Assembly: GCA_949358305.1 (NCBI GenBank)
Contig: OX442315.1
Span: 8,086,427-8,150,426, forward strand
Direction: 5' to 3'
Length of the DNA: 64,000 nt
DNA from: Strigamia acuminata
Taxonomy: Eukaryota; Arthropoda; Chilopoda; Geophilomorpha; Linotaeniidae
Below, piece by piece: positions 15,931 through 63,083 of this stretch (the stretch's first letter is position 1; each line of letters begins with the position of its first letter). A model generated the notes under the pieces. That model was not told where the DNA came from. It did no database searches and worked only from the letters and a program-made list of their open reading frames with translations. A program made the position numbers and the translations under genes.

Positions 15931-16104
15931 ATTTCCACTTCTGGTCATTTATTTTAGGCCAACACACAATTTTGCATACCGACCAATTTTTCTTTCCATT
16001 TCGTAATTTTTCAATCATCTTTTTTTATAGACAATAAACTTAAATATTTTAACAAAAGTTACTTTTTTCCACATTTTTTTCTGTCTTCTGCGCTGTGTGT
16101 GTTA

Positions 16105-16530
16105 AAACTGGTGTTTAAAACGGAGAAATTGGAGGCGGCGCCGTGTATTCCCAATATTATCTTTCAAATATCGAATATTTCCTGTGCATAAAAATCTGAC
16201 TTTTGAATTGGTCCTAGAAGTAACCACGTCAGCCGACGCAGGTGCAGATATTTCCAGCTTTGTGGATGCCCAACCATCGGTGCACCACGTAAATAAAGGC
16301 AAAAATTCCTCCAATTTCAACGCGAACTCGCACGAAGGTGGCAAACGGTTCTTGAGGGGCACCACCGATCACCAACAAGAGCAGTCGGACCAACCACAGT
16401 ACGACGAAGCCAAGTGCAAATCGTGCAATGGCACCGGTCACCAACCACATTTCAGCGACAGAAAATGCAGATAATGCGGACAGACTGGACACCACAGAGA
16501 CAACTGCAAACATCGTCAAAAGTAATATAA
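16105..16530 (+). pseudogene. Retroelement gag remnant with two zinc knuckles
   Basis: One frame (16184-16474) encodes CKSCNGTGHQPHFSDRKC, then a stop, then in the same frame CGQTGHHRDNC. Two consecutive CCHC-type knuckles are typical of Mag-like and related Gypsy Gag proteins. Upstream, 16105-16160 is a copy of repeat R2 (ttggaggcggcgcc). No polymerase follows. Confidence 0.5.
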
Positions 16531-17271
16531 AAGTAATACATTTCCAAATGAATTAGATACAGGTAAAGGATAATAAGATAAAGTAATAACGTCGGCAAAC
16601 GTCTTCACGGCGTTGAATCCTCACGGTTGCGGTCCTAAGATGGCGGCGCCTGAGCACGGGTTTTGACAAAGCACGCTCGATGCCAAAATCCCCTCAAAAC
16701 ACACAGGAAAAGACTGTGATCACTTTCAGTAATCAAAGCAAAGATGCTATTCTGTTTAAGTTGGCACAGACCAGCAAGTTAAATGTCAATTCTTCCAGTT
16801 ACCACGGATCACACTTAGCAGTTTTGGCATAAGTTTGAACAGTTGTGGAGTTGTTGGAAGTCGAATCAAGAGTAATTAAAGTGCACCAAAACGGTTTGGC
16901 CCATCCTAAATTCTGCGCAGAACCACAAAATTGGGGCTGTGACTAAGTGGAAATTTAATTTGAAATTTTTCATTAGTGGAAACGTGATTTCCTTATTTCT
17001 AGGTAACATGAATTCTGATACACCCTGTATATGTAGAAGTAAAACTGAATTGTCAATATTAATACAAAAATCCGTAAGGACTCGGTTTTGCTAACAATGT
17101 TATACATTTTCAGACAAGTGTTTGCACATGGCGCAGAAGACTGACAAAAATGTGGAAAAAAGTAGCTTTTAGTAAAATATTAAAGTTTATTGTCTACAAA
17201 AAAGATGTTTGAAAAATATCAAAATAGAAACAAAATTTTGTCGATTTCGATAAGCAAGATTGTGTGTTGGT
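16531..17271. other. Gene-free spacer
   Basis: Mostly non-coding. Possibly decayed retroelement sequence in its first 400 bases; nothing I can identify. The last part (about 17100-17271) is the 3' flank of the minus-strand LRR gene, with its poly(A)-signal region near 17190. Confidence 0.4.
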
Positions 17272-18444
17272 CTAAAATATGTGTAAATTGCACTCCAAAT
17301 TCAAGTTGTGATTTTTCGCATAACTTTCAATTTCTTCATAAGCGAATTGGTCAATATTAAGACAATTTGTCAAATTCAACTGTTCCAACGGACTTCGCAT
17401 TTTTAACAATTTCATCATCGAGGTCAAACTAACCGAATCACAACGAAATAACTCCAAAACTTTCAGATGTTTAAAGCCATTTGATCCGGCAAGATCTAGA
17501 ATCAAATTGTCAGTAAGAATACCACAATCTTCAACATTTAATGCTTCTAAATGCTCACACTGCTGCAGAAGCATTTTCATTTGCGATTCACTCATATCAT
17601 CCCCAATGTGATGCAGTTGCAGAGTGGTTAGTCGTTGAAGTAAGTTAATGTTGTTGCTGCACAGTACCGAGGCAAAATTCACGTCCATTCCACGAATAGA
17701 TAACTCACGTAAATTTGGGAAAGTGGTGTTAACAAACATGACATTTTCTAGATTCAAATCGTTTGACATTTCCTCCAATAAGTAGGTTCGCGATGTTGGG
17801 TTTGATCGTCGTTTTAAAGCACCAAATATCTCGCTCCAGCAGTCATTAATTCGAAACTCTTTCAAAAGAGGCAGTCCGTCTAGAAGGAACAAACACTCGT
17901 CGACCGTCAGCCTGGAAGTCGAGAGTTCCAAAAAGGTCAGTTTCGTACACCGGATTAATGGACGAAATCCTGCACTTTTGCGTTCGGTGTAATTAGTAAT
18001 ACACAATTTGACCAATTGCTGACAACTTTGACCGATTGCGGCTACGAATTCATCCGTGCAGTTTATGCCGGACAAGGATAAATGTTGAAGTCGTGGTAAA
18101 AGTGTCAACAGTTTGGTTACAGATTGTAAACTTATATCTCGTTGGAAGGATGTAATAGAATTTAAATTTAAGATTAAGAGGTTTTTACACACGCCTATTT
18201 TATCCAATGTGAGATCGATGGACGGACCAAAGTTGTGCAATTTCTGTAGTGATTTGGTGCCGGAATTGATAAAGATTTGCGGAGAAATATTGGTATACGG
18301 AAATTTGCAACACATTTGTTCGTATATCATGCCGATAATTTCGGCTGGCTGGTCCGCTAATTCGTGTTCCAACGCATCGAAATTGGTGGTTACGGTATTT
18401 ATACACATTTCTTCCAGACTCGGAACGGATTTCCTGTACGGCAT
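17272..18444 (-). CDS. BC-box/LRR protein, putative cullin-ligase substrate receptor
   Basis: Intact 390-residue gene; the start at 18444 gives MPYRKSVPSLEEMC. BC-box S9-L10-x3-C14-x3-V18; Cul2-like P33, I36, I40. The acidic/alanine patch LEHELADQPAE follows the box. LRRs include LPRLQHLSLSGINCTDE, CTKLTFLELSTSRLTVD and CEHLEALNVEDCG. The segment LDGLPLLKEFRINDCW separates the two LRR blocks. Upstream cassette at 18445-18600. Very similar to the gene at 14764, which is in the opposite orientation. Soluble protein by sequence. The substrate is unknown. Confidence 0.87.
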   Translation of the reverse strand: MPYRKSVPSLEEMCINTVTTNFDALEHELADQPAEIIGMIYEQMCCKFPYTNISPQIFINSGTKSLQKLHNFGPSIDLTLDKIGVCKNLLILNLNSITSFQRDISLQSVTKLLTLLPRLQHLSLSGINCTDEFVAAIGQSCQQLVKLCITNYTERKSAGFRPLIRCTKLTFLELSTSRLTVDECLFLLDGLPLLKEFRINDCWSEIFGALKRRSNPTSRTYLLEEMSNDLNLENVMFVNTTFPNLRELSIRGMDVNFASVLCSNNINLLQRLTTLQLHHIGDDMSESQMKMLLQQCEHLEALNVEDCGILTDNLILDLAGSNGFKHLKVLELFRCDSVSLTSMMKLLKMRSPLEQLNLTNCLNIDQFAYEEIESYAKNHNLNLECNLHIF

Positions 18445-18600
18445 GTTTACTAGAAGCACTTACGATTGAATGAATAATCAAATTATTTGCATATATCCAG
18501 CGAGCAACGTAAGACAAACATATTTGCAACTTCCAACACGCGCTCATACGTTATTTGGGCTTTCAGCGCCCCCATTGGTCATTTTATCATACTAGTTCCC
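18445..18600 (-). promoter_or_regulatory. Upstream cassette of the LRR family
   Basis: The core tttcagcgcccccattggtc is at 18561-18580, with an acgtaagacaaacatattt block nearer the start codon. Its distance to the ATG (about 120-135 bp) is the same as in the other cassettes. Confidence 0.5.
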
Positions 18601-18805: not shown

Positions 18806-18913
18806 TCCATCCACAGTAAAAATGTTTTCTCCTCCTAAATTCTTAAATCCAATATCGGTATGAGTTGAAACTGGCGTTGTGTAATTGGCTAGTGTTACGT
18901 ACGTCGTACATAC

Positions 18914-19544
18914 TGTCGTGATTCGACTTTGTGGTTAAAGATAATAAATAATACACTCGGGAATACAATATATTTCAAATACTGCTTTATTAAAACACGC
19001 TTACTAATACAAATATAAGTCAAGATGTTTCCTGTGTTGGTCCTCGGATTCGGCTGCGAATACGAGTTGCCGCTAAACAATGGCGGATCCAATTGTTTAG
19101 TCCTACGCGTGGTCTATGTTTGTTGTCTAGGGTATTTCCACGTGTTATTATGAACACGCGAGAATTCGCTTTCTCGTGCGAATTAAACGAATATCGTTCG
19201 AATATTTATTCTAGCGTAGATTGGCTACGCTAAATAAATGTGGCTGTTGTACAGTTGAAATGGTCAGCGGGCACCGGTCCTCGATCAATCCGTGAAACGG
19301 CCTGAAAGGTGAGGTAAATGGTGCTCTTGCTGAAATGTGGTAACTGTAGTGTCGTTTCCGGTCAAGCATTGGCTATATATATTAACCGGAAATGACGTCA
19401 TATGCAAATCCTTCTGATTATGCAGGTTCGCAGAAACACGCGACTAGTCAGTCTAGTCGGTATTTCTAGCGCGCTCTAGTGGCGAGTATTAGTAACACAA
19501 TAATCACCGCTAATTACTTCTTCAGGTGATGCTGAATCACCACA
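18914..19544 (-). repeat. 3' LTR of Gypsy-1
   Basis: On the plus strand it runs tgtcgtgattcgac to gaatcaccaca, 631 bp, apparently identical to 30045-30675. Contains a tatatata stretch near 19375. Confidence 0.93.
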
Positions 19545-19560
19545 CGTCCCTCCCCGAGAA
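19545..19560 (-). promoter_or_regulatory. Polypurine tract of Gypsy-1
   Basis: The minus strand reads tctcggggagggacg immediately before the 3' LTR, a standard plus-strand priming tract. Gypsy-3 has a similar tract at 60050-60062. Confidence 0.7.
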
Positions 19561-19738
19561 TAAATCATCGGGGCCCCCCCTTTAAATAAAGGTGGAGCAG
19601 TATCTTTAATCATAAATAATCTTTTTATTAAATAATGATGAATGATGAACAAAATATTTTACATTCTTGAAATTGATACATAAATAATTTCAGGGTTTTT
19701 TAGAGAAGACAGTCTTCTCGTTATGAATATGTAATTAA

Positions 19739-22700
19739 TTATTTCTTCAAGTTATCGGCGTAACTTGGCTTATCTTCCGAACTTGGTTCGTCCAGGTTGG
19801 GAGATGTGGTCAATTTTGAAGAGTAGTCCGAGGGGTCTTCGCTCTCGTTCAAGTAGAAACGTAAGTGACCTGGTGCTTCCAGCGGATTCCCCGTTCGTTC
19901 GTGGGCCCAAATTGGCGGCAAAAAGGGCGACATTCCCTGATTGGTGTGATGGATTCTTTGGGCCTCGGCAATGCTGGTTGGCGCGCGATGGGCTCGGAGT
20001 AGTCGTTGATGCTGGATGAAGCGATCGCCTCCGGCTCCAGCTTCGATAGCGTTCTTCATCCAGACATAAAGAGAATAGCCACGGTCTGGGGTTTGGAGTA
20101 ATTTTGTTTCAGTATCCTTCGTCAAGGACAACCCCGGGAAGTACATCCGGAGTCTGGCGGCGATCTGAGGTTCGGCCGTCTTTGAAGCTTTCATGCTCGA
20201 TTTTGGGCGGAGCAATTTTCCTTTTGTTTCCTTCTTTTTGAGCGAGACTGGTTCGGCCAGTGGTTCGGAAGGTCTATTTTCCTTCGGCGGAGGCGGAGGA
20301 GGAGGCGTCGGATCCCTGGGAGCCGGAGTTTCCACGACGGGTGTGGTCACTGAAGACGACGGGCGTGGGTGTTGGATGATCGCTCGAACGTTCTGATAGG
20401 AGGTCTCTGGATCCGGGTCCTGGGCCACCATTTGGGCTCGAATTACTGCCGCAGAGGGCACTAGGCGGGTCCAGCTGTCTACGAGAGCCGGCGGGACTTG
20501 GAAACCCTCGTGGGCCACCACGATCCAGGCTGCCACAGCAACACGTGCGTTTCGGAAGGTGGCGGCGGCCAGCAAAATCGACATCAAGTCGGTAATGGCA
20601 ACCACGATCCTCGTATTCCAATTTGGATGATCCCGATTTTTGTTCTGCGTATATTCAATCGAGATCCGCTGAAGGTTCGTGATGACGTTTTGGATCACGT
20701 TTTGTTGGTAGGAGTCCATCTCGCACAAAAGCGCTCTAGCTTGCTCCACGGTCGTTACCTCCAGAAACTGTTGCAACGTTACCTCCGAAGGGTTGATTGG
20801 AGTCGAGGCTTGGATGACTGCTGGGGCTGGCAACATCGGATTGGGTCCCGTGGATGTCGTTGGCTGAGGCACAGATCTGACCAGACGTCTTGATTTTTCC
20901 GGTTCGGGCTTGTCCCAAACGATTGGAGTTCTCGTTGAAGTTGAGGCTTCGGGGATAGTTGGGAGAGGTTCGACTTTGGCCGGTCCAAAGCGAGCTTCTC
21001 GATGTCTGAGTTGTTCTTCAGAACTCAGTGTCGGTGCGCCGATTATCACTTTCTTGCGAAAGGCGCTTGGGAGGCTGACGCTGGATGTTACGCTTCTCGT
21101 CTGCGAGAGTTCCGGCTTGATGAAAGCACTTGGCGCCGTCTCTAGACTCGAGGCGGTCGAGGGAGTCGGGCGGTAGACTGGTTTCGGCTGCATTTGTTGG
21201 TATTGCATAACTACCGCGAGGAGGTCCGCCTGAGTATACATCTTCTTTTGCTCGGGGACCTCGTCGATAATTACCTCATCGTCGATCTTCATTGGTTCGG
21301 GACTGTCCCGAATTGATCGTGTATCTTCGCAGCGCCTCCTATCTCGCTGTCGAATTTCTTCTTCACGATACGCTTTCCATGAACGTGCGCGACTCTCCGA
21401 TCCTCTCCTTCTTCGTTCGTCTTGTAGACGGAGGTTCTCTCGTTCACGTCGGGCTCTTTCATCACGTTCGCGCAGGAACTCCTCTCGGTGTCTATTCCAG
21501 GATTCCTTGTTTTCTTCCCGCCGTCGGAAGTAATTTCTACGATAATCGTCCCAATTTTCTTGGTTCCTATCGCGTCGGCGTTGATCTTCTCGGCGGTCGG
21601 GGCGTTCGCGTACATTTTCTCTTCTTCGGCTGGTTGACGGGGCATCCCTGGATTGAAATCGCGATGTTTGTGGGATCTCCGTCTTTCCCAGGCGAGAGAG
21701 AGCGCTTGGTTTGGCCAGGCGTTTCTCTGTCGCGGGTTTCTTATTCTGCGCGCTGCTGGAAGTGCTTGGCTTGTCCAGGCATGGTTTCTTCGCTGAGCAG
21801 CCTGCTTCGTCGTGCTCGTTGGAGAGACGTTTCTCGGCCTTCTGGCGTTTGCGACCAAAGAAGCCCAAAAAATGCAATTGATGCATTGCTCGTTGCGAGG
21901 TGATGAAACCGTGTCTCGGTCTCCAATCTGGGCGGTCGGGCCGGTCTTCGCGGATCTGAAGGAGCCAAAACCTGATTTCCTCGGTCGAGTAACCGTCCGG
22001 CTGTAGATAATTGAAAACCTCGTCATGTGCGGTCCGCCTTACTTCTTCGTAATATGCCATATGAATCTGGTGTTTTCCTTCATCTGTTTCGGCGTCGCGC
22101 CATTGTTCGTAAACGTCCCATCCTCGCTGGTCGTCAGGAAAGGCGGCTCGGATTAGTGGATTCGGGATTGGCGCTGGCGGGTCCATATTTCTCGAGATAA
22201 CTGCCCGTAAAGCTGCTTGATATTGGCGCGGCATGTAGTGGATCAACGTTTGCTGGCTGGACCAGTAGCGGCTGATCGCACGGGACAATAAAAGGCGAAT
22301 TTTCCATGGTTCAAAGTCGACCGCTTCTTCGAGCGCTTGTCGGAACAGTATGGGGATTACTTCGCGCCATAAGCTGCCTGCGGAAACTCTTTTCGGGTCG
22401 ATTTGCCCCCACGTAGTGCGATATCCGTCCTAAATATTAGAATATTAATAAATATATTAGGATCGTTGATTAATTTGTCATATTTTTGTAGAGATTCTTT
22501 CGTCTAACACAAGATGGCGTCATGGTCGGCCATGTGCTTTTCGACCACGTGTCTTGAAGTTAATTTTTCTTTCGGTATTTGATTAATTTTGATAATTTGT
22601 CACTTAAAGTTAAATTATTTCTTCGTTTGTGGTCAGTCCACGAACTTATTTCGTATTTTTGATTATCGATAATTGAATTTTTTCTATTTTTTACTTACGT

Positions 22701-22848
22701 CGGGTTGGACATCGGGTTCATTGGGTTCGTCCCAATTTCCCTCTTCGTTGTTTACAATGATTTGTAACAAATCCACTTGATCTTCATCGTCATCCTCGGA
22801 AGCGTTGTTTACGGCCCGTTCAATTTCTTTCTTCCAATCATTTCTCAT
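19739..22848 (-). CDS. Gypsy-1 ORF3: large hydrophilic protein of unknown function, spliced
   Basis: Proposed exons 22848-22699 (50 codons, ATG at 22848, very acidic) and 22429-19739, joined in phase 0 for about 946 residues. The intron has GTAAGT at its 5' end and TTTAG at its 3' end, with an in-frame stop right before the second exon. The product has an N-terminal helical part (to about residue 260), a long Arg/Glu-rich, probably disordered middle, a Pro-rich stretch, and a C-terminal domain (motif LRMYFPGLSLT, residues about 835-930). It lies where env would be, but I see no signal peptide, transmembrane segment or cysteine pattern. The 60102-62894 protein shares the architecture and C-terminal domain. 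Function unknown; a virion or RNA-binding role is conceivable. Confidence 0.7.
22430..22698 (-). other. Putative intron in Gypsy-1 ORF3
   Basis: 269 bp, GTAAGT to TTTAG, AT-rich, with stops in all three frames as far as checked. It separates two open segments in phase 0. Its Gypsy-3 counterpart is 270 bp, also phase 0. Confidence 0.65.
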
Positions 22849-23026
22849 TTTTCGGAAACTAATTTGATTTCACGGCTGTCTCGAGGTGATCGTTGCTTAG
22901 TCGGAGATGACAGTGATAAGTGTGGGTCGGGTTAGAGGTTAACTATTAGTCTCATGTCATCTTTGATTGGTTTGGCCAATTAAGACGCATTGTGGGACGT
23001 AACAGGTGTCCCCCCTGTGGTTGTTT

Positions 23027-26000
23027 TTATCGATTGTTTGAGACAATGGCCGGAGTCGCTTTTTGTTTTCCGACGAGTTTCCCGTCTTTTATGAACGGGT
23101 TTGGCTTGTGTCGGCGCATACCGTATATTTTATCAGGTTTGGGGATTCCTGTAGTCTTCTTTTTGTTTGATTGCTTTCCTTTTTTAGGAGATTCTGCGAC
23201 TATTTCCTCCCTCCCCGAAATCTCATCCGGGGCGTCGGCCACTTCGAGTAACTCATCTTGAACTAAATTGGTTGGGCCAGTTTGTTCATCTAAAAACATG
23301 TCGCGAATAATTGGATTTTTCGCTGGTTTCGTCTGATATTCCGTCCAAGCCTCTTGAGGAAACTCAGGTAAGTATGGAGTTAATTCTCGGGCGTGGATCG
23401 ATCTAAAATTAACGTTATCTGCCAATCTTTTTAGCTTGAAAGCGTTTCCGCCGTGGGCTTCGAGTATGACGTACGGGCCGTCGCGTTTGTCTGCTAAGCC
23501 TGCGTGGATCCCCTTATCGGCGCTGGACTGAATATGTGTGTCTTTCCAGACGAGGTCATTGACTTTAAAATTGCAGAAGGGCCGATCCTTTCCAGCAATG
23601 CTAATACGATCTCTCATGTCGAATATGTGTGACATCATGTGCTGATAAGTGGCCGAAATTATTTGCTCCAGTCTGTCGACATAAATATGAGGCTTCTCAG
23701 GATCAATTTCCAGTATTTCCTCCGGTATTCGTGGGTCCCAGGGTACTCTGAGTTCCCGAGCGAAGTTTAGAAACGCGGGAGAAAATTTGCGGTTCCTTGA
23801 GATCGTTGTGCGGATGCTGAAGGCAATTTCACGAAGATATTCGTCCCAGCTGGAGTGAACATCGGTGAAAATTGCTAGTGCATATTTTATATCGCGATTT
23901 AACCTTTCGACGGGATTGGCCCGTGGATTATAGGTTGATGTATATGATGTCTCGATGTCGAATTTTTTACAGAAGTCTTTATACAAATTTGACGCGAATT
24001 GTGGTCCATTATCGGAGATTAATTTTCGAGGGAATCCAAAATGAAGCGCCACTTCGTACAAACATCGAATGATTTTTTGCTTAGTTGGTCTCTCCATTGG
24101 AAAGAGTTCGGGCCATCCAGTCGCGACATCCATGATTACTAATATATATTTGTTTTTATTGGATGACGTGGGTTTTGGGCCCATTAAATCCACGCTCCAG
24201 CAATCGAAGGGTGCGAAAGGGCCAAGTGAGATTCTCTCGTAGTTCTTGGGCGTCCTCGGCTTGCACGCTTGGCATCTGGGGCAGTGATGAATAAAACGAA
24301 CAATATCTCGGGTCATTTTTGGCCAGAAATAAAGTTGATTTGCTCGGTAGATCGTTCTGGCCACTCCAGAATGTCCGGCGAGCGGGTGTCCGTGGACCAT
24401 CCACAGAAACCTTGTCAGCAGACTCCTGGGTATAACGACTTTCATCGAAGTTCCTGTCTCCGTCAGATCATCGCGGAAATTCGGGTGGTGTTTTAGTAGA
24501 AGTCCATCCTCGATTAAGTACGTGGAGGCTTCTCTTTCGAATTCTTCACGTTGGATTTCGTCGAAATTCTCGTCGGGAAATATTTTATCTGTGATGAAGT
24601 CTCGATAAGTTTTACAGAAGTCGTCTGCCATCTGGGCGGCTATTAATTCGTCCCTGGTGGGCGGTTTGCTATTCGTCCCCTTGCTTACGTGGGCGACGAA
24701 TGCTCGAACGTACTTGTCGGAGATTCGAGGTTCTATTGTTAGCTCATAATTTGGGTGAGCGTCCTTGACCGACTGGTACGCTCGGAGCCAATAACTGTAA
24801 TAATTCTGGTCTCCTGACTCGAGTTTCTCCTTGGGTAATTCGTTTAGCTTTTTAAATTCCCATTTTCGGACGGGGTTCGGACAGTAGAAGAGGCGTGAGT
24901 CGTCCTCTCCGCAGTCGGTCTCGTCTTCGGGGTCTGAAGCTGGGGCTCGTGAGAGGGCGTCTGCCACGACGTTGAATTTTCCGGGTCGGTATTCAATGAT
25001 TAAGTCACAAGCCATTAATTCTAGCTGCCAGCGAGCCATTCTTCCGGACGGTTCCTTCAACGCCATTAACCACTTTAGTGCTTCGTGGTCAGTTTGTACG
25101 TTGAACTTGGTAAATTCCAGGTATGGTCTGAATTTTCGGATTGCCCAGACGACGGCTAGACATTCTAACTCTGTCGCATTATAATTCTTTTCGGCTGCTT
25201 GTAATTTCCGGCTGATGAACATCGTCGGGACCTCTAACACTACTCCGTCGATGTCATGCTTTTGAAGCAACGCAGCACCTAGGCCAATTCGACTGGCGTC
25301 GGTGTGAAGAGTGAATTCTCGATTAAGATCTGGTAGGGGAATTCGTTTTACATCGATCAGCATTTGTTTTATTTTGTTAAACGATGTTTCGCAGTGGTCA
25401 GTCCACTCGAAATCTTTATCGTTGCGTAACAGATCTGTGATGGGCGCCGCGACGTCTGCCAAATTTGGGAGCAATCGATTGAAGAAATTCACCATGCCCA
25501 TGAAACGTTGGACTCCTTTTACATCTTCCGGGGCGGGGAACTGGCTAATCGCCTGGGTCTTTTTCGGGTCGATGGATAGGCCACCTGTTCCGACTGTGTA
25601 ACCCAGGAATGCCAATTCTTTGCGGCAAAATTTACTTTTCCCTGGATGAATGTTTAGACCGGCTTTTGTGAGTCGCTCCATGACGTCATTCACGTGTATC
25701 AGGTGATCTTCAAAAGTTTGGGAGACTATGACTATATCATCGAGGTAAGCCCATGCGTATTTGTGTAAGGCATCGCCGAGAACTTTTTCTATTAGTTTTT
25801 GAAAGGTGGCGGGTGCGTTTACTAACCCGAAGGGCATTACATTAAACATCAGTCGACCCTGTGGTGCCCAAAAAGCTGTTTTCTCTTTATCCTCTTCCCG
25901 CAATTCAACCTGCCAGTAACCCTTGGACAAGTCCATGGTCGTGACCCAGTTAAATGGGGCGAGCTCCCGTAGAATCGCTTCTATTGACGGCATTTGGATG

Positions 26001-27109
26001 GGGTCGATGACGGTTATGGCGTTTAAAGGTCTATAATCGATGCAGAGGCGCGGTTCGGAGCCTGGTCGCATGACGAGGACAATCCTCATTCCATATTCTC
26101 CGATGGCGTGCGACACGATCCCTTTTTCGAGCAACTCGTTGCACATCGTTCTTACGATATGTCTCTTTTGGGGATTCATAGTTTTAAAAGGTACTCGCAC
26201 CGGTTTTCCCGTAACCAATTCGATCTCGTGCATTACGTAACTAGTCTTTCCTGGATCTTTATTTAAGTTCTTCGAGTGCTTCTTGAGCATTTCCTCGAGG
26301 AGTTTCGTTTGTTCTTCTCCAAGATTGGCGTCCATGGCCAGATTATGTATTAAATTCTCCTCTTGGAGGATAGTATTAAACGACTTAAAATTATAGTCTT
26401 GGATGAACTTCTTAATTTCGCCTCCTCCCCATTCCTCGTCGTCCTTAGCTTTGTCTAGGAGTTCCGGAGGTATTATGGGTAGTCGTGGGTCCTCGTGGTT
26501 GTCGATGTAATTCCACGAACGTGTGACTGGGTTGGGCTGGATGTTCATCCGTTCCATCAAATCCATTCCTATCAGCAGGATTGTGTCTCGGGTTGGTAAC
26601 ACGATGAAGAAATGCTTAATCGTGCCTCCTTCCCATACAAAATCGGTTGATAACGTCCCCACTGCTCTAACTTCTCCCGCTGCTGTAAGAACTCGAATAT
26701 TCTCGTTCATTCCCCGTAATTTTTTCTGTATTTTTTCTTCGAGTGATTCGAATAAGTCGGTGGAGATAAACGACTGATCCGCTCCCGAGTCGAGTAGTCC
26801 CATTAACACCTTTTTGCCGAAAGAGACTGGTATTTTAGCCAGTACGCTCTTCGCTTCTGTTGATAGGTTGCAACGAAGTATTCGCTTTTTAAGAGGATTG
26901 GCCCCTTGGTCAAGCGGCAAAGTCATGAAAGCGTTGGCTATACCGTCTTCGTCTCTAATTTCGAATTTCCGTTTTTTGGTTGGAGTTGTGACTTCCTCGT
27001 TGGCAGCTTCCTCGAAGAATTCCAACAATTTTTTCATTTCTTTAATTTGTTTTTCCACCAGTGTAAGGTCCATCGTTTTCGAAGTTATCGCGAGCGGATG
27101 TGGAATCAC
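23027..27109 (-). CDS. pol: Gypsy-1 Pol polyprotein
   Basis: Open for 1360 codons. Domains in order: aspartic protease (LLDSGADQSFIS, about residue 104); reverse transcriptase (CIDYRPLN, then MPFGLVNAPATFQ, then YLDDIVIV near 452); RNase H (HTDAS near 603); integrase with zinc-binding HPLAGHSG and CPRCQAC (about 911-945), DLMGPK, SDNGPQF (near 1032), the catalytic Glu in NPVERLNRD, and a GPY/F-type tail (KRDGPYVIL). All catalytic residues are present. The frame begins on a GTG overlapping the gag stop by four bases, so expression probably uses a -1 frameshift or re-initiation; an ATG exists at 27073. Protease-RT-RNase H-integrase order places it in Gypsy (Ty3-like) elements. Confidence 0.93.
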   Translation of the reverse strand: MIPHPLAITSKTMDLTLVEKQIKEMKKLLEFFEEAANEEVTTPTKKRKFEIRDEDGIANAFMTLPLDQGANPLKKRILRCNLSTEAKSVLAKIPVSFGKKVLMGLLDSGADQSFISTDLFESLEEKIQKKLRGMNENIRVLTAAGEVRAVGTLSTDFVWEGGTIKHFFIVLPTRDTILLIGMDLMERMNIQPNPVTRSWNYIDNHEDPRLPIIPPELLDKAKDDEEWGGGEIKKFIQDYNFKSFNTILQEENLIHNLAMDANLGEEQTKLLEEMLKKHSKNLNKDPGKTSYVMHEIELVTGKPVRVPFKTMNPQKRHIVRTMCNELLEKGIVSHAIGEYGMRIVLVMRPGSEPRLCIDYRPLNAITVIDPIQMPSIEAILRELAPFNWVTTMDLSKGYWQVELREEDKEKTAFWAPQGRLMFNVMPFGLVNAPATFQKLIEKVLGDALHKYAWAYLDDIVIVSQTFEDHLIHVNDVMERLTKAGLNIHPGKSKFCRKELAFLGYTVGTGGLSIDPKKTQAISQFPAPEDVKGVQRFMGMVNFFNRLLPNLADVAAPITDLLRNDKDFEWTDHCETSFNKIKQMLIDVKRIPLPDLNREFTLHTDASRIGLGAALLQKHDIDGVVLEVPTMFISRKLQAAEKNYNATELECLAVVWAIRKFRPYLEFTKFNVQTDHEALKWLMALKEPSGRMARWQLELMACDLIIEYRPGKFNVVADALSRAPASDPEDETDCGEDDSRLFYCPNPVRKWEFKKLNELPKEKLESGDQNYYSYWLRAYQSVKDAHPNYELTIEPRISDKYVRAFVAHVSKGTNSKPPTRDELIAAQMADDFCKTYRDFITDKIFPDENFDEIQREEFEREASTYLIEDGLLLKHHPNFRDDLTETGTSMKVVIPRSLLTRFLWMVHGHPLAGHSGVARTIYRANQLYFWPKMTRDIVRFIHHCPRCQACKPRTPKNYERISLGPFAPFDCWSVDLMGPKPTSSNKNKYILVIMDVATGWPELFPMERPTKQKIIRCLYEVALHFGFPRKLISDNGPQFASNLYKDFCKKFDIETSYTSTYNPRANPVERLNRDIKYALAIFTDVHSSWDEYLREIAFSIRTTISRNRKFSPAFLNFARELRVPWDPRIPEEILEIDPEKPHIYVDRLEQIISATYQHMMSHIFDMRDRISIAGKDRPFCNFKVNDLVWKDTHIQSSADKGIHAGLADKRDGPYVILEAHGGNAFKLKRLADNVNFRSIHARELTPYLPEFPQEAWTEYQTKPAKNPIIRDMFLDEQTGPTNLVQDELLEVADAPDEISGREEIVAESPKKGKQSNKKKTTGIPKPDKIYGMRRHKPNPFIKDGKLVGKQKATPAIVSNNR

Positions 27110-29952
27110 TTTTGTTCCGCCCGCGAGTTCCAGTTTTTTGTCATACTGTCGAATTTGGCGGTGAGTTCCTTCAAGATTTTTTCTTGTTCCTTCGCGAGCA
27201 ATTTCACTAGTTCCTCACGCTCTGCGGCCTTGTCGTCGGCTTTTTTCTTTGCCAGTTTTGGGCAGGCCTGACGCCAGTGGCCGTCTTCGTTACAGAAATT
27301 ACAAGGGCTTTTCTTCTTTCCCTCCCGCTCAAAAGGTTTTTTGGGGTAGTCCTTCTTCTCGGAAGTCGCCTCTGTTTTCGGGTTGTGGTGTTCCGATTTT
27401 CTGGACTTCATCTGAGGTCGGTAGCTGGGCGCCAGTTCCTTCCCCATGTTTGCGTGTACCACATCGTTGATACCTTCGTCAGCCTCATCGCTTTCCGAGA
27501 ATTGCTCAGAGTCTTCGCTTACTTCGTCTTCCGACTTTTCCTCGGCGGCGTTAGTTTGCGTGCGATAGGCCTTATTCGGAGGTGGTAAAGGGTTAGAAGC
27601 TTGTTGGTTTTTCTTTGAGGGGAGTGGCTCTATACTTCCGTTTAGATAATTTCGCGATTGGAGCAGCTTAGTGGAGTCTATGCTGCGCTCCTGTATTCGT
27701 TGCTGTCGGGCCACTCCTAGAGCTCGCTCTTCTTTTGTCAGATTTTCGTTATACCGAGCATTTACTTCGGTGTGTTTCTTCTCGACGAAAGCTAGGATGG
27801 CTTTGAAATTATCCCCTTTAGGAGCGTTCATTTCTCGTAGGACTTTGGTTGCGGTTTCGTTTAGTCCTTGTTCGAAGAGAGCTTTCTGAGCGTGTTGGTC
27901 AAATGGTTTGTCCATTTCACGGAACAGGCTGTCGGCTCGTTGTACGTATTCCCTCAGAGTTTCCCCGGGAGCTTGCTTCATAGAGCTTACTCTTTTCTGG
28001 ATTTCTTGGCTCGTCTCGCCATATTGATTGTGGAACTTTATGACGAAATCTTCCCAGTTTCGGGGTTGGACATCAGCGTACCAGTTTCGGGCCCGGTTGA
28101 TCAGCATTTCTGGTATTCCGCGTGCAACCATTTCGTCGGGTTCCGCTCCTAAGCGATTAATCGTCAGGGCGACTTCGTCCAAAAACAAGTTGCCGGCGTT
28201 CCAGGATCCGTCGAACTTAATTAGTCTCAGGGTCGTCCACTTGATGTTGTTATCCTTGCGAGAATACAGCCATCGGTCTGCGGAGTAACGTTTCAACAAT
28301 CCTTCGCTTCGATCGTCCTCCTCGGTCTCTTGGCCACGGCTTTGTTGAAGTTTTTGGTCCATGGCCTGAAGGAGTTCGTCTTTCATCGTCCGTAGTTGGT
28401 TGCTTAGCGAGTCAGTCTCACTAAGCAGCGGTGATGATCGTGGATTGTCGGAAGGGAGGCTTGGGTAATGCGTACCGTTGCCCGTCAGTCCGAACTGATT
28501 GTGTTGGAACGACGTTTTCCCTGATGATCCCGCGGTGTTCGGGTTATTCGTGAGGTCTTGCGCTATGGTTGAGTTATCTGGGTTCGCTTTCTCTGGAGCG
28601 GAGGTTTGGCTCAACTTTGTTCCGGGCGGTATCAGATCGTCCAGTCGGGTCCCCGTGAGGCCTTCGTTCGTTTTTTTGATAAAAACGTAGGAATCTCTCC
28701 CAGCATACGCTTCGGCGGCGTGTTTCTTTTCGAGGTGATTTTTAACTGCGTTAATCTCCTCGAGCGTCGGCATGGCCAGTTTATTTTGACCTACTTCGTT
28801 GCGTATTTGATTCTTCTGATTTATACATCTGATTAGCTCTGCGTTAGGGTCGCCTGGGTTGTTATTACTGGTTTGGCCAGTTTTCATTGCGAATGAGTTT
28901 TTTACTGCCCATGATTGTGCGCCCTGATTATTCCTCCTATCCTGTATAAACGCCTCGTACAGTTCTCCTTTGACTTCGTCCGATTCGTTCAAGATGCTAT
29001 CTAGTCCGTTGACTCGGATACTGCCGTGAGATGCTTGAGAGTCGATACTTTCGCTGTCTGACGTTGCTTCGCCGCCTGTCTCGGACTGTTGTCGATCTGC
29101 TCCGACCCGACGTCGTTTCTCTCCGCGTCTGGCCGTGTTATCTGCCGATCGTTTTTCAGTCCTCTGATTTACTAGGTCGATTACTCGGCTTAGCTCTGCG
29201 TAGGGATCCTTGTCCTGGTCGATCTCGATGCCGTGTGCGCAAGCTACCCGAGTTACTTCTATTGCTTTGGCTACCAGCTCCTTAGCTGTGTGAGACCGTT
29301 CTGGGGAGCTCTGTACGGAGTTTGGCTCCGAATGCTGGCTTAACCCGTTGCTTGGCGGCCGGATCTGGCAGTCCTTTGCCATTTCTCGTTCGATTATTTT
29401 CTGCTTCGCGAGCAATTCTCGAGCCAGCTCGCGCTCCAGTGCCATTTGTTTAGCTTGGTGTTCTTGTGCCAAGCTCTGTTCCATGGCAGCTAATTTCTCG
29501 CGATGCTCTCTGGCTAAATCTTCCATCAATTCGTTTTTCTTCTTCTCTAACGCGACTGTTCTTGCTTGGTCTGCGCGGGCAGCCTCGTTGATAATTGCGG
29601 CACTTGTGTTTGCCGCTTTATTTAGAAGAGTCATTAGATCCATTTCACTGGGATCCTTTTCGACTGGTCTTGGGCTTTTCAATCCGAATCGAGGGTTTTC
29701 GAACGATTTATTTAGTCCGTTTTCTTCGTGAGAGCTTCCTGATCCTTCGAATTCGCCTCCCGTAAACGGAAGTTGTCTTGCAAGGGGAAGGCTTTCACTT
29801 GATGATTCCGTTGAAACTTTAGTCGAGTTAGTCTCGACTTCTGGTTCCACGTGGTTCGCTTCTTCCGCTTTTTGGCGTTCGATTTCTTCGGCTTCTTTTC
29901 TATCCTTTTCGTCGTTACGCCTTTTTCTATCTTCTGCGGTAGTTTTTGTCAT
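27106..29952 (-). CDS. gag: Gypsy-1 Gag-like protein
   Basis: 948 residues, longer than most Gypsy Gag proteins. The N-terminus is Lys/Glu-rich and probably coiled coil (residues about 1-220, with repeated REHREKLAAMEQ-type heptads). A capsid-like region lies at about 570-770 (motifs LINRARNWYADVQPRNWEDF and LREYVQRADSLFREMD, a retrotransposon-Gag pattern). One CCHC knuckle (CNFCNEDGHWRQAC) is near residue 884, then a basic tail. The stop overlaps the pol frame. ATG at 29952, 93 bp inside the 5' LTR edge. It forms the particle and packages RNA by family analogy. Confidence 0.88.
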   Translation of the reverse strand: MTKTTAEDRKRRNDEKDRKEAEEIERQKAEEANHVEPEVETNSTKVSTESSSESLPLARQLPFTGGEFEGSGSSHEENGLNKSFENPRFGLKSPRPVEKDPSEMDLMTLLNKAANTSAAIINEAARADQARTVALEKKKNELMEDLAREHREKLAAMEQSLAQEHQAKQMALERELARELLAKQKIIEREMAKDCQIRPPSNGLSQHSEPNSVQSSPERSHTAKELVAKAIEVTRVACAHGIEIDQDKDPYAELSRVIDLVNQRTEKRSADNTARRGEKRRRVGADRQQSETGGEATSDSESIDSQASHGSIRVNGLDSILNESDEVKGELYEAFIQDRRNNQGAQSWAVKNSFAMKTGQTSNNNPGDPNAELIRCINQKNQIRNEVGQNKLAMPTLEEINAVKNHLEKKHAAEAYAGRDSYVFIKKTNEGLTGTRLDDLIPPGTKLSQTSAPEKANPDNSTIAQDLTNNPNTAGSSGKTSFQHNQFGLTGNGTHYPSLPSDNPRSSPLLSETDSLSNQLRTMKDELLQAMDQKLQQSRGQETEEDDRSEGLLKRYSADRWLYSRKDNNIKWTTLRLIKFDGSWNAGNLFLDEVALTINRLGAEPDEMVARGIPEMLINRARNWYADVQPRNWEDFVIKFHNQYGETSQEIQKRVSSMKQAPGETLREYVQRADSLFREMDKPFDQHAQKALFEQGLNETATKVLREMNAPKGDNFKAILAFVEKKHTEVNARYNENLTKEERALGVARQQRIQERSIDSTKLLQSRNYLNGSIEPLPSKKNQQASNPLPPPNKAYRTQTNAAEEKSEDEVSEDSEQFSESDEADEGINDVVHANMGKELAPSYRPQMKSRKSEHHNPKTEATSEKKDYPKKPFEREGKKKSPCNFCNEDGHWRQACPKLAKKKADDKAAEREELVKLLAKEQEKILKELTAKFDSMTKNWNSRAEQK

Positions 29953-30022
29953 TTCTTACGATATAATGATCGATCGAAAGATCCCGGTTATTATTTAAAG
30001 TATTGTCTTAAGGTTAGCAAAT

Positions 30023-30042
30023 CTATCCCGGACAGACCCCCA
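30023..30042 (-). promoter_or_regulatory. Primer-binding site of Gypsy-1
   Basis: The plus strand reads tatcccggacagaccccca, ending two bases before the 5' LTR. It resembles the 3' end of tRNA-Pro with about three mismatches out of 18, from memory of animal tRNA-Pro. The tRNA assignment is tentative. Confidence 0.55.
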
Positions 30043-30044
30043 CG

Positions 30045-30675
30045 TGTCGTGATTCGACTTTGTGGTTAAAGATAATAAATAATACACTCGGGAATACAAT
30101 ATATTTCAAATACTGCTTTATTAAAACACGCTTACTAATACAAATATAAGTCAAGATGTTTCCTGTGTTGGTCCTCGGATTCGGCTGCGAATACGAGTTG
30201 CCGCTAAACAATGGCGGATCCAATTGTTTAGTCCTACGCGTGGTCTATGTTTGTTGTCTAGGGTATTTCCACGTGTTATTATGAACACGCGAGAATTCGC
30301 TTTCTCGTGCGAATTAAACGAATATCGTTCGAATATTTATTCTAGCGTAGATTGGCTACGCTAAATAAATGTGGCTGTTGTACAGTTGAAATGGTCAGCG
30401 GGCACCGGTCCTCGATCAATCCGTGAAACGGCCTGAAAGGTGAGGTAAATGGTGCTCTTGCTGAAATGTGGTAACTGTAGTGTCGTTTCCGGTCAAGCAT
30501 TGGCTATATATATTAACCGGAAATGACGTCATATGCAAATCCTTCTGATTATGCAGGTTCGCAGAAACACGCGACTAGTCAGTCTAGTCGGTATTTCTAG
30601 CGCGCTCTAGTGGCGAGTATTAGTAACACAATAATCACCGCTAATTACTTCTTCAGGTGATGCTGAATCACCACA
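30045..30675 (-). repeat. 5' LTR of Gypsy-1
   Basis: 631 bp, apparently identical to the 3' LTR at 18914-19544. The primer-binding site adjoins its left side. It ends ccaca at 30675, followed by the ATAC duplication. Confidence 0.93.
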
Positions 30676-38058: not shown

Positions 38059-38059
38059 C

Positions 38060-59088: not shown

Positions 59089-60049
59089 TGTGCTGCGATC
59101 CGGGTTTTTATCCACTTAATTTCTAATAAATTAAGCAGAAACCGCAGGTGAATGCTATAAAAGACTTACAATCGGCGGCCTTAAATTATCTAGGGGTTAA
59201 GTTTAAGGAAAAGAAATAAAAAGACAGTTTTATTAATAAAAATCACAAATATGTATTTATTCGTTTAAATTACAATGACTAGTTAAAAATATCACAATGG
59301 CGACAAGTCGCGAAATGAAATGAGCGGGAACAATGGAAGGGCTTGCAACGACTGTTGCAAGCTACAAAGCGCTAAAATGGCGCTTAAACAACACACAGTT
59401 GTTAGGCGAAGGCGAATTGTCTTCGTTTGCTGAACTCACGAACGATGGTCGAAGACGATGGTTCTCGTGGGCTCCTTCTACGGCTCGTGCGACGGCTCGG
59501 CGGCGGTGGTTGACGGCTGTAGGCGTCCGGCTCTCGTACGATGGCGGTGGCTGTCGTTCGCGCGGCAGCGACGGCGATGGTTCACGATCGTCGGGAAACT
59601 TCTTCTTCTCGTTTGCTGGAATTAGCTACGGCTAATTCAAGCAGAATTGCTGGCTTTGTGCTTTGGGTGGCACAAAGATAGCAGGTGAAACTGAGTTACA
59701 ACGGTCCTCTATCAATACGTATTGTCGGAGCAGATATTGCAGTGATGTTGAGGTTGTTGTTGTATTTTTCAGAGTCCCGATTTGAGCCAAGACGCGAGCC
59801 CAGCACGCTTCAATATTGCGCAGAAAACCTGCGCACTTAGCTCAAATGGGTGCAACTAGTGGTTATTACACCATATTGCACCATAACGGCTAATAACCGT
59901 TTTCACCCCGGACAACCTGGGGTGATATGTGCCTAGAGAGGATTTCTCCCCTCGGTCACATGATCTGACTTGGCGTGTGCCACAGTCAAATTAATTAGAA
60001 GATAATTAATTTAATCTTCTAAGTTGGTGAATATTTTGAGATCACCACA
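59089..60049 (-). repeat. 3' LTR of Gypsy-3
   Basis: About 961 bp; right end gatcaccaca is clear from its similarity to the Gypsy-1 end and the adjacent polypurine tract (catccccccat). The left end at tgtgctgcgatcc is inferred from resemblance to the Gypsy-1 LTR start and could be off by a few bases. Contains a GC-rich block at about 59440-59600. Confidence 0.65.
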
Positions 60050-60101: not shown

Positions 60102-62894
60102 TTATGATTCGTCCATGGTCTGAGTTCGCTCAGGCGTCAACGGGCGCATCATATCCGTGGTGTCGTCCCTCGGGTTGGACCGCTCGTTAACCGTACACAG
60201 GTCGCGACCTGCGTTTGGTCCGGAGACCATTCCAGGGTTGACATGAAGCCAAACCTGGATGATTCTCGCCGAGTTCGCTCGGTTGAAAAATCCTAGCGCC
60301 GCAAACTCTATGGGATCCTCTGGCGCCAATCGTGCTCTCAGGAGTCGATCGTGGAGCACTGATGGTGGGCTTAACACCCGGATGTGGTCCTCGAGCCACA
60401 TAAACACCTGCCTCGACAACTTGTGGTTGTTGCTAAGCAGTGTTCGCGTATCCGGCGTCAAATAGAAGTGCGGATACAGGCGCATCAGGGTCTTGAAAGC
60501 CGACTCTTTTTTCAGCGGCTTGACCTTCGTCTCCGGCTTGGCTGGCGGCGGCGGCGGACGTGAGTCTTCCGTCGTGGCATCGTCAAAATGGCACTGCGGG
60601 CCCAAGAAAACCAACGCGGGTGCGGAGGTTGACGAGGGTGTGACGCCTCGTCCCGGTGCTCGACCCACACCGGGGAGCTGACGGGTTTCGACTACCCGTT
60701 GAACTCCGGCTGGAGTTTGAGAACTTCCGGCGTTCTCTGGCCAAAATGAACATCCAGCGCCCTCTTGGGCCGACTGGAAAACAGCCAGTGACGCAGCTGC
60801 TGTGGCGCTTGTAACTGGAAGCGGTGGTCTTCCGGTCATTCGCGCCGTGGCCTTCGCAAAGGACCACTCGGTTCGCAACCGAACGGCGGCCTCTTCTTCG
60901 GTCTCACCGTTTGCTACGACTTGCTTTATTAGCTCGGCTAAGATCGTAGGCGGGTCGAGCCTGAGGTGGTACCACAGCTCGACTTTCTTCTCCGACAGGC
61001 CCATCGGCGCGGTCCAAAGGTACGTAATGGCCGCTAACGCCTGTCCTGGCGAAGGAAGAACACCAGGGTACAACACCCTAGTCATCCCCGGAATTAGCTG
61101 ACGCTGAAAATCCATCAGACGGGGATCATCAATGGTATTGATGTCGGAGACTTCTAGCCTTTCAGCTAGTCTCTGCCAGTCCTTCTGCGACTCGGCGATC
61201 TGGGCGCTTTGGTATGCGTCCAGCTTCTGGAGCACTTCCTGCTGCGCTCTAATGGGTTGCTGCTCGTAGCAGGTCCATTGTGGGCCGAACGACTCACTGA
61301 AAAATGGCCGGAGTTGCAGGTTGCTAACTCCAGCCGGCAAGCGGGAAACATAACCTTGTTCGGGCAAGCGGCTAGCGTGTCCAGGTACAGGCACGCTACA
61401 GTCGGGAGAAATATCACCGACGACACGTCTCATGGCGTATGGAGTAGCCGGGTTGTCCACTTTGAACGTGGAGGCGGTTCGGCTACTTCGGGCGGACTTA
61501 ATTGTGGAGTCCGATTCGAAACTCAGCGAAGACGACGAGCCAAACGACTCTGGTGTCCGTCCTCGTCGCGACTGCGGGCGTGATGGCTGCGCGTCAGTCG
61601 AATATGGGCGTGATCGCCTCTGACGTTCCTCTCGATCGCGGCTTGATTCGCGGAACATCGGTCGGACTGGAACCGGCGGAGGGAGTTGCCCCACCCTCAA
61701 ATCCTCGTCTTGCGGCGGAGGATTGATGGCCGCTGGGGCCGGAATTCCATCTTCTTGATAAAAAGGGAGAGCGCAACGCGCTTGCTCCTCTGCCTCGTGT
61801 TCTCGAGCCAGTTGTCGATTTTCGTCGACGCGAAGCTGCACCGCGGCAGCTCGGAGTGCTTTGGACGGGAAAAATCCCGGAAAATCGTTAAAACACCCGG
61901 CGAGCGCCAACTGGTGGAGCTCGGTTTGTGTGACGGGAAGTTGTGGGTTCCCGTCACGAACGGATTTGCGATACCGTTTAACGACTTCGCGTTGTGTCGT
62001 CTTGAGGTTCTTCCTCAATTGGGTTAGAGCACCGTAATTAATTCCGGTACTCTTTAGCGCTCTTCTGCGCTCGTGACGCTCTCGTGGCGTCACTGGCCAC
62101 TGGTTGTGCAGCAACTCTGCTGCAAGCGGTCCTGGGGGGCTCTCGTCGAGCGTCCACTCGATTTCGTCGACACCGTCCACGTGAAGGCGCTCGATGAATC
62201 TTCCTTTTGCACCAAATCCTTGCAGCGCTGATCTGCTGAAGTCGTGGCGCAACTTCCACCAGGTATTGTTTGCCGTCTTCAGTCTTCTGATTTTTTCGGG
62301 CAATGCCGCTCGAAAAATCAGCGGGTGCTGAGTCGGCACGTGATCGGGAAGCGCGAATGGTGTTTCTCGATCCCTCTCGATCTATATTCGAAGAAAAATA
62401 AATAAATTAGTTTATTTAAAAATAAACAAATAATTTCTTATTTGAAATATTTTTTAAGCTTAGCGCTTGTGGCTGTGAGTCACTAAGGGATGTTGGTTGT
62501 CATGGCAACTCCCTTCGCACATGCTTGAAGCACGTGACTTTTATAGCCGCCATTTTTATTTTTTAGCGGCTTGTGTTTGAAGTCAGGAAAAGTGAAATTA
62601 CTCAATTTTTCTGACTTAAACACTTGGTAAAAATTTATTCTAATAATTTACCCGTTGTTGAAGCGTCAATTGAACGTCTTCATTTGCCCCTTCCATGGGC
62701 ATTTCTCCGTCCGCCTGGAGTTGGATCGCTTCCTCGTCCATTCTCTTTCGTTTTCCGGTAATTTCGGAAATTCTTTCGTCTTGAAAGAGAAATAATACAT
62801 AAATCTTATGTTTTATCAAATTTTTCATACAGAAAAATTACTTACGATCAGGTTGTCGAACTATTCGGGTCGTAACGTAGGCGATGCGATGCAT
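60102..62894 (-). CDS. Gypsy-3 ORF3: spliced protein, homolog of Gypsy-1 ORF3
   Basis: Proposed exons 62894-62846, 62779-62652 and 62381-60102 give about 818 residues in one frame (49 + 128 bases = 59 codons before the last exon). Splice ends: GTAAGT/TCAAG and GTAAAT/TATAG. The last exon alone is open for 759 codons. Layout matches the Gypsy-1 protein: helical N-terminal part (with VTQTELHQLALAGCF against ITSQRAMHQLHFLGFF), a Ser/Arg-rich middle, and a C-terminal domain (LMRLYPHFYLTPDTRTLL). No signal or membrane segment, so not an envelope. The first exon and its ATG are the least certain part. Confidence 0.65.
62382..62651 (-). other. Putative intron 2 of Gypsy-3 ORF3
   Basis: 270 bp, GTAAAT to TATAG, phase 0, the same length and place as the Gypsy-1 intron (269 bp). 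Confidence 0.6.
62780..62845 (-). other. Putative intron 1 of Gypsy-3 ORF3
   Basis: 66 bp, GTAAGT to TCAAG with a short pyrimidine tract (ttatttctctttcaag). It interrupts a codon. No counterpart is obvious in Gypsy-1. Confidence 0.5.
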
Positions 62895-63083
62895 ACACTC
62901 TCGAAACTTTTGAAAAAGTGACTAAGTTCGTTGATTGCAAACACGAACTTGGATTAGAGACGCTTTGTGACGTCACTAATTATAACGTATGATTAACGTT
63001 GTCATTCGAGTGGGTACTACGAATGACGTCACGAGATTGCTTTCTCGGATCTTTTGGGTAAACCCAAAAGGTGAAAGACAACA

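What the first reader, a model, noticed from the sequence alone, without database searches (positions are those of the whole stretch)
19739..22848. A retrotransposon third ORF with spliceosomal introns, in two diverged elements
Gypsy-1 and Gypsy-3 both carry, after pol, a large ORF3 whose 5' exons are separated from the main exon by GT-AG introns. The phase-0 intron of 269 bp (22430-22698) and 270 bp (62382-62651) sits at the same place, and Gypsy-3 has one more (62780-62845). Introns normally vanish from elements that copy themselves through RNA. Their keeping means the genomic RNA stays unspliced while a subgenomic RNA makes ORF3, as retroviruses do for env and accessory genes. Yet ORF3 looks nothing like an envelope.
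Basis: partly seen in the sequence, partly recalled or inferred. Interest (0 to 1): 0.88.

Follow-up and report, generated by a model that had tools for sequence, protein, structure and literature searches.

The report
Retrotransposon accessory gene with real introns
Two related jumping elements in an arthropod-like genome carry an extra gene interrupted by introns; in one of them, two genomic copies that lost introns at exactly the predicted borders show that these are spliced in the cell, so the element seems normally to keep its genome-length RNA unspliced.

Summary
Gypsy-1 (window 18914-30675, minus strand) and Gypsy-3 are Ty3/gypsy elements whose env-position ORF3 is split by GT-AG introns at the stated coordinates. 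The decisive test was finding copies that had already lost them. In Gypsy-3, copy L069 lacks exactly the 270-nt intron; copy L070 lacks exactly both the 270-nt and 66-nt introns, with pol sequence still upstream and one frame open across both junctions. Against these 2, 74 places keep the exact intron-end/exon-2 string. So Gypsy-3 introns are spliced in vivo, spliced pol-containing RNA is occasionally retrotransposed, and unspliced RNA is the usual template. No Gypsy-1 copy with adjacent exons was found; its splicing is inferred. ORF3 exon 2 is under purifying selection (NG86 dN/dS about 0.1), has no Pfam match or homologue found and lacks envelope hallmarks. The proposed subgenomic mRNA (gag-pol spliced out) is not shown; no leader-joined copy was found at the junction tested. 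Closest analogue: the spliced CERV protein of C. elegans Cer1, which exports unspliced genomic RNA. A CERV/Rev-like role is the leading, untested hypothesis.

The parts
18914..19544 (-). Gypsy-1 3' LTR (631 bp)
   Evidence: 100% identical to 30045-30675
30045..30675 (-). Gypsy-1 5' LTR; ATAC flanks both ends (18910-18913 and 30676-30679), a 4-bp target-site duplication
   Evidence: flanks read
30025..30042 (-). primer-binding-site-like TGGGGGTCTGTCCGGGAT just after the 5' LTR (tRNA not identified)
   Evidence: 136 exact matches genome-wide (59 + 77)
27106..29952 (-). Gypsy-1 gag ORF (Retrotrans_gag; zinc-knuckle match below its cut-off)
23027..27214 (-). Gypsy-1 pol open frame (protease-RT-RNase H-integrase; protease matches below their cut-offs)
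22699..22848 (-). Gypsy-1 ORF3 exon 1 (ATG at 22848; acidic)
   Evidence: 4 of 5 printed B-type copies carry a 3-nt in-frame insertion
22430..22698 (-). Gypsy-1 ORF3 intron, 269 nt, GT-AG, phase 0
   Evidence: contiguous with both exons in 14 of 14 subfamily-A copies; L023, L036 and L057-L059 have lost part of it by deletions or breaks not at splice sites; no copy with exons adjacent
19739..22429 (-). Gypsy-1 ORF3 exon 2, 896 aa plus stop
   Evidence: 51 of 51 scored genome copies without an inner stop; NG86 dN/dS about 0.1
62846..62894 (-). Gypsy-3 ORF3 exon 0 (coding part from ATG at 62894)
   Evidence: joined base-exactly to exon 1 in L070
62780..62845 (-). Gypsy-3 66-nt intron, GT-AG
   Evidence: precisely absent from L070, present in L069
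62652..62779 (-). Gypsy-3 ORF3 exon 1, 128 nt
62382..62651 (-). Gypsy-3 270-nt intron, GT-AG, phase 0
   Evidence: precisely absent from L069 and L070; 74 places keep the exact intron-end/exon-2 string
60102..62381 (-). Gypsy-3 ORF3 exon 2, 759 aa plus stop
   Evidence: 59 scored copies, 1 with an inner TGA
59091..60049 (-). Gypsy-3 3' LTR (outer 5' boundary approximate); contains a donor-like GTAAGT at 59169
   Evidence: the 5' LTR lies 11,375 bp upstream
62968..63031 (-). two TGACGTCA (CRE-like, name recalled) sites between pol and ORF3 of Gypsy-3, possible internal promoter

Best explanation
Gypsy-1 and Gypsy-3 are young Ty3/gypsy LTR retrotransposons of one lineage that carry, in the env position, a non-envelope accessory gene (ORF3) split by host-type GT-AG introns. 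SHOWN (DNA evidence): in Gypsy-3 both introns have been removed exactly, as splicing does, and such RNA has been reverse-transcribed and inserted. INFERRED: the same splicing in Gypsy-1. INFERRED: most genomic RNA that is copied stays unspliced, which keeps the introns, while spliced RNA is the ORF3 message. INFERRED, weakest: ORF3 is a nuclear, arginine-rich regulator that helps the element move its intron-containing genomic RNA out of the nucleus, working like CERV of Cer1 or like retroviral Rev, without detected relationship to either.
For: Two copies with exons exactly joined; L069 lacking the 270-nt intron and L070 lacking both introns base-exactly with pol sequence upstream; L070 reads as one frame across both junctions; the search for exon 1 joined to anything but its intron found only L070. 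74 exact unspliced strings. Purifying selection on exon 2: NG86 dN/dS 0.09-0.14 over six pairs, YN00 0.15-0.22; codon-position changes 29/19/83 and 25/16/127. Two families sharing 60% identity in the integrase end share an ORF3 C-terminal domain (26%, E 5e-7 for that single comparison) and a phase-0 intron near the N-terminus. Clusters of basic residues (Gypsy-1 RKRQK and an arginine-rich stretch; Gypsy-3 KRYRK in exon 2 and KRKR in exon 1). Precedent: CERV (PMC10309623; abstract, passages, sections 9 and 15 read).
Against: No RNA data. No Gypsy-1 copy with exons adjacent. No leader or gag sequence joined to Gypsy-3 exon 1 found as integrated DNA; no donor scoring 5 or more in the leader of either element (recalled matrix). 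Basic clusters and NES-like patterns are common in disordered proteins; structure models were poor (mean pLDDT 41.1 and 56.5), so no fold supports an RNA-export role. Homology to CERV could not be tested.
Confidence: 0.6

Rival explanations
1. The introns are spliced, but ORF3 is made from its own promoter between pol and ORF3; there is no retrovirus-like subgenomic splice that removes gag-pol.
For: Two TGACGTCA sites 56 nt apart lie in the Gypsy-3 pol-ORF3 gap, and one lies in each Gypsy-1 LTR; no good leader donor in Gypsy-3; no leader-joined copy found; the Gypsy-1 acceptor before the ATG is AA in 5 of 5 B-type copies printed.
Against: Motifs were picked after the fact; L070 shows splicing in RNA that contains pol, hence from an upstream promoter; Gypsy-1 has no TGACGTCA in its pol-ORF3 gap.
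Confidence: 0.25
2. Spliced ORF3 serves another role (silencing suppressor, particle component, integration factor), and the introns merely set the ratio of spliced to unspliced RNA, as in plant Ogre elements.
For: ORF3 exon 2 has no recognised domain or homologue; Ogre and EVADE are intron-bearing precedents (PMC12786077, passages).
Against: Does not by itself explain how intron-containing RNA reaches the cytoplasm.
Confidence: 0.3
3. The missing stretches in L069 and L070 are ordinary deletions or assembly errors, and the 'introns' are chance GT-AG strings.
For: Non-splice deletions exist in the Gypsy-1 family (L023, L036).
Against: Three junctions match predicted GT-AG borders base for base with 0-1 nt of ambiguity, on two contigs, keeping frame; the deletions in L023 and L036 do not end at splice sites and have 17-nt overlaps.
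Confidence: 0.02
4. ORF3 is a degenerate or diverged envelope gene, as in insect errantiviruses.
For: Position after pol; env of insect errantiviruses is made from a spliced RNA (PMC12992720, passages).
Against: No Pfam match, few cysteines, no strong transmembrane stretch in Gypsy-3 exon 2 and only borderline ones in Gypsy-1, rich in Pro, Ser and Arg; introns lie inside the post-pol gene.
Confidence: 0.03

Closest known systems
Cer1 element and its CERV protein (C. elegans; PMC10309623)
   Same: Ty3/gypsy element; [quoted passage not shown] protein from a spliced multi-exon mRNA; unspliced genomic RNA must be kept; rapid divergence; basic nuclear-signal-like motif
Insect errantiviruses (gypsy, ZAM, idefix) with spliced env (PMC12992720, passages)
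   Same: third ORF after pol; in them the third ORF is expressed from a spliced RNA
   Different: their third ORF is a membrane fusion protein whose main exon is joined to an upstream leader or gag exon; here it is not an envelope and has introns inside the post-pol gene
Ogre and EVADE plant elements with introns (PMC12786077, passages)
   Same: functional introns in an LTR retrotransposon, used to make different RNAs
   Different: plant elements; the intron is not in a post-pol accessory gene (recalled, not read here)
Bdelloid rotifer LTR elements with captured ORF3 (PMC5408684, passages)
   Same: diverse non-envelope ORF3 types, said to be expressed from spliced messages
   Different: their ORF3s are esterases, exonucleases, coiled-coil or env-like; no such Pfam match here
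Retroviral Rev (described in PMC10309623 section 15; Rex recalled)
   Same: a protein that couples unspliced genomic RNA to export; arginine-rich and made from multiply spliced messages (recalled)
   Different: much smaller proteins (recalled); no homology shown; function here untested

Membership tests
Ty3/gypsy LTR retrotransposon | LTRs with target-site duplication and primer-binding site | tested here: met
   Gypsy-1: 631-bp identical LTRs, ATAC duplication, PBS-like site; tRNA primer not identified
Ty3/gypsy LTR retrotransposon | pol order protease-RT-RNase H-integrase | tested here: met
   Pfam order in 23027-27214; RT, RNase H, integrase over cut-off, protease below cut-off
Spliceosomal intron | GT-AG borders and exact removal in a cDNA-derived copy | tested here: met
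   Gypsy-3 L069, L070; for Gypsy-1 only borders met, no such copy found
Insect errantivirus envelope | membrane fusion protein with transmembrane region and conserved cysteines | tested here: not met
   no Pfam match; hydropathy and Cys counts of exon 2
CERV of Cer1 | spliced mRNA for a non-envelope protein in env position | tested here: met
   Gypsy-3 exons joined in L070; the RNA itself was not seen
CERV of Cer1 | first exons shared with gag | tested here: inconclusive
   no gag- or leader-joined copy found among exon-1 junctions; RNA needed
CERV of Cer1 | sequence or fold homology | not testable with these tools
   CERV sequence not at hand; models too poor for a fold search
CERV of Cer1 | required for export of unspliced genomic RNA | not testable with these tools
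   needs experiment
Rev/Rex | arginine-rich RNA binding plus CRM1 export signal | not testable with these tools
   only basic clusters and NES-like patterns seen

The most novel reading that the evidence does not exclude
An arthropod Ty3/gypsy lineage has independently evolved its own Rev/CERV-type system: a multi-exon accessory protein, made only after splicing, that licenses nuclear exit of the intron-containing genome. The ORF3 introns would be the switch that makes the element depend on that protein and that penalises intron-less copies.
Probability: 0.25. Interest if true: 0.85.

Novelty: new variant of a known kind. Interest (0 to 1): 0.62.

Why it matters
Spliced third genes are known from errantivirus env, from Cer1 CERV and, as reported, from rotifer ORF3s. 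Introns inside a non-envelope post-pol gene, kept in two diverged families while occasionally lost by retrotransposition of spliced RNA, give a natural experiment on how a retroelement balances splicing against packaging. Two intron-less copies sit in one genome with 74 exact intron-bearing places, so intron-loss rate and the fate of intron-less lineages can be measured directly. It also offers an arthropod system in which to ask whether Rev-like export proteins arose repeatedly.

Tried and rejected
Homologues of ORF3: none at E 0.001 or better among the 7991 scored candidates, with Gypsy-1 exon 2 or with the two-sequence alignment. Structure models of two ORF3 parts were too poor to search (mean pLDDT 41.1 and 56.5), so no fold search was run. 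Spliced Gypsy-1 copies: none by exact pattern. A leader-to-ORF3 acceptor at 22859 in Gypsy-1 was considered and dropped: 5 of 5 B-type copies printed have AA in place of AG. L023, L036 and L057-L059 of Gypsy-1 were examined as possible splice products and rejected: the breakpoints are not splice sites. Shared motifs in the two introns (CACGTG, shuffle chances 0.02 and 0.008; AANATGGCG, 0.001 and 0.0035) were picked after looking; two broader motifs tried in the same call had chances of 0.08-0.28, and the longest shared string in the same sense was only 9 nt. They are only a lead. Rfam: no match in the window. Pol 3'-end comparisons A versus B gave 15, 14, 16, 17 and 17 differences over 1373 nt without third-position bias, so selection on that part of pol is not demonstrated by these copies. 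Distant ORF3 families in the genome could not be reached, because near-identical copies fill the scored lists (51 scored of 3402 candidates; 59 of 1461). The exact primer-binding string of Gypsy-1 was not found near the Gypsy-3 places in the part of the hit list printed (only the first 100 or so of 136 are listed); Gypsy-3 has a slightly different string.

Full report
What is there. The window holds a complete Ty3/gypsy element, Gypsy-1, on the minus strand at 18914-30675: two identical 631-bp LTRs, ATAC on both flanks, a primer-binding-like site after the 5' LTR, gag, and pol with protease (below Pfam cut-off), RT, RNase H and integrase domains in gypsy order. After pol comes ORF3: exon 1 (22699-22848), a 269-nt GT-AG intron and an 896-aa exon 2. 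Gypsy-3 runs into the window from its right end. It has exon 2 (60102-62381), a 270-nt intron, exon 1, a 66-nt intron and an ATG-bearing exon 0, with its 3' LTR at the left and its 5' LTR 11,375 bp upstream of that. The genome (237.5 Mb, 157 contigs) is unnamed; 54 matches to the cuticle domain PF00379, with none in 14 control genomes, make it arthropod-like (reading this as arthropod rests on general knowledge, and the controls' identity was not shown).

Are the introns real? For Gypsy-3 the genome answers. I searched for the end of exon 1 and the start of exon 2 lying 0-9 bases apart. Two places match, both with gap 0. L069 (contig C3) lacks exactly 62382-62651 and keeps the 66-nt intron. 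L070 (contig C8) lacks exactly 62382-62651 and exactly 62780-62845, with 913 nt upstream (exon 0, the pol-ORF3 gap and about 670 nt of pol) identical to the window. L070 is open as one frame from exon 0 into exon 2; L069 is open from inside the kept 66-nt intron into exon 2. Border ambiguity is 0-1 nt. A search for exon 1 preceded by a base other than the intron's G found only L070 (the pattern also excluded C eleven bases before exon 1 and allowed no other mismatch, so some alternatives would be missed). The two losses may be independent or successive: both copies share a variant near the exon-2 start that the window copy lacks (its frequency elsewhere was not checked). I therefore claim at least one loss of each intron. 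For Gypsy-1 the same test found no such copy. In Gypsy-1, 14 of 14 subfamily-A copies place exon 1, intron and exon 2 contiguously; five other copies (L023, L036, L057-L059) have the intron cut by breaks that are not at splice sites.

Is ORF3 a gene? In Gypsy-1, 51 of 51 scored copies are open without inner stops. In Gypsy-3, 58 of 59 are. Both lists are capped at the best matches. Between Gypsy-1 copies, NG86 dN/dS is 0.14 (L009/L029), 0.10 (L009/L024) and 0.11 (L029/L024); YN00 gives 0.21, 0.15 and 0.18; three more pairs give similar values. Changes fall at third codon positions: 29/19/83 and 25/16/127. Of five B-type copies printed, four differ in exon 1 by a 3-nt in-frame insertion, and all five have a 7-nt insertion in the gap upstream. 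Exon 2 is more diverged from the window copy (4.9-6.3% over nine B-type copies) than the intron (1.1-4.1%), exon 1 (0-2.7%), pol end (2.1-2.7%) or LTR (1.4-4.3%); the 3' untranslated stretch is 2.1-2.6% in four of the nine and 12.4% in five. Synonymous divergence of exon 2 is 15-30% by NG86, 11-21% by YN00. The subfamilies therefore look like mosaics, recombined inside ORF3 (differences are unevenly spread along exon 2). The low intron divergence is not by itself proof of constraint.

Are the two ORF3s related? The integrase ends of Gypsy-1 and Gypsy-3 are 60% identical over 194 residues. Their ORF3s share a C-terminal domain (26% over 144 aligned columns, E 5e-7 for that single comparison) and a weakly alignable N-terminal part. 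Both have a short acidic exon 1, then a phase-0 intron of almost the same length, then the large exon. The simplest reading is one ancestral ORF3 with the intron already present (inference).

What does ORF3 do? Exon 2 has no Pfam match and no homologue found. It is rich in Arg, Pro and Ser, with 4 and 7 cysteines; Gypsy-3 has no strongly hydrophobic 19-residue window, and Gypsy-1 has three just over the usual threshold. It is not an envelope by these measures. Basic clusters are present in both families. Two AlphaFold models were all-helical but of low confidence.

Mechanism. Shown: the Gypsy-3 introns are spliced in RNA that still contains the end of pol, and such RNA can be copied back into the genome. 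Inferred: most packaged RNA is unspliced, because nearly all copies seen keep the introns although they descend from RNA. Inferred: ORF3 is translated from spliced RNA. Not shown: how ORF3 reaches the 5' end of a message. The Gypsy-3 LTR holds the best donor-like site in the Gypsy-3 stretches scanned (GTAAGT, window 59169, score 7.5 with a recalled consensus matrix). If used, it would remove the primer-binding site, so that message could not be copied by the normal route; this would fit the absence of leader-joined copies (inference). An internal promoter is the alternative: two TGACGTCA sites lie in the Gypsy-3 pol-ORF3 gap.

Comparison with the literature. Cer1 of C. elegans is the closest system: its env-position ORF is part of CERV, a nuclear protein from a spliced five-exon mRNA, required for export of unspliced genomic RNA (PMC10309623; abstract, passages and sections 9 and 15 read). 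Insect errantiviruses make env from a spliced message (PMC12992720, passages). Rotifer LTR elements have non-envelope ORF3s described as expressed from spliced messages (PMC5408684, passages). Plant Ogre and EVADE have functional introns (PMC12786077, passages). PMC7998251 (passages) concerns an ostracod gypsy element with a possible env remnant. Searches of the held library (listings cut at 20 of 29, 20 of 26 and 20 of 525) listed no paper that I recognised from title and start of abstract as describing introns inside a non-envelope third ORF of an arthropod gypsy element; most subscription papers are not in that library.

Verdict. The retrovirus-like reading is partly supported. It is a new variant of a known kind, with a CERV/Rev-like role as the leading but untested hypothesis.

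Noticed in passing
window about 1635-18459 and 35344-54770: A cluster of many diverged copies (6-7 per repeat family on each strand, roughly 60-90% identity) of one leucine-rich-repeat-like gene, in direct and inverted order, with transposons between them; Pfam LRR and F-box-like matches are below cut-off.
   Followed up: partly
30836-34819 (+): A second gypsy-type pol ORF (RT, RNase H, integrase) begins 160 bp beyond the 5' LTR of Gypsy-1, on the other strand.
   Followed up: no
50593-53058 (-): A copia-type gag/integrase ORF.
   Followed up: no
55733-55944 and 58848-59059: 212-nt inverted repeat, 97% complementary, 2.9 kb apart, ending just outside the Gypsy-3 3' LTR: perhaps a fold-back or DNA transposon next to which Gypsy-3 inserted.
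   Followed up: no
L023 and L036 (Gypsy-1 copies): Internal deletions joining pol or gag-pol sequence to points inside the ORF3 intron, each with a 17-nt overlap of the BLAST pieces, as template switching would give.
   Followed up: partly
22430-22698 and 62382-62651: Both long introns contain CACGTG and an AANATGGCG (YY1-like, name recalled) site, in different orientation and context.
   Followed up: partly
Gypsy-1 exon 2 (19739-22429), copies L009, L024, L029: ORF3 exon 2 looks like an older, recombined module: NG86 synonymous divergence 15-30% while LTRs differ by 1.4-4.3%.
   Followed up: partly
L057-L059 (C5:3.63-3.65 Mb): A cluster of rearranged, partly inverted Gypsy-1 fragments.
   Followed up: no
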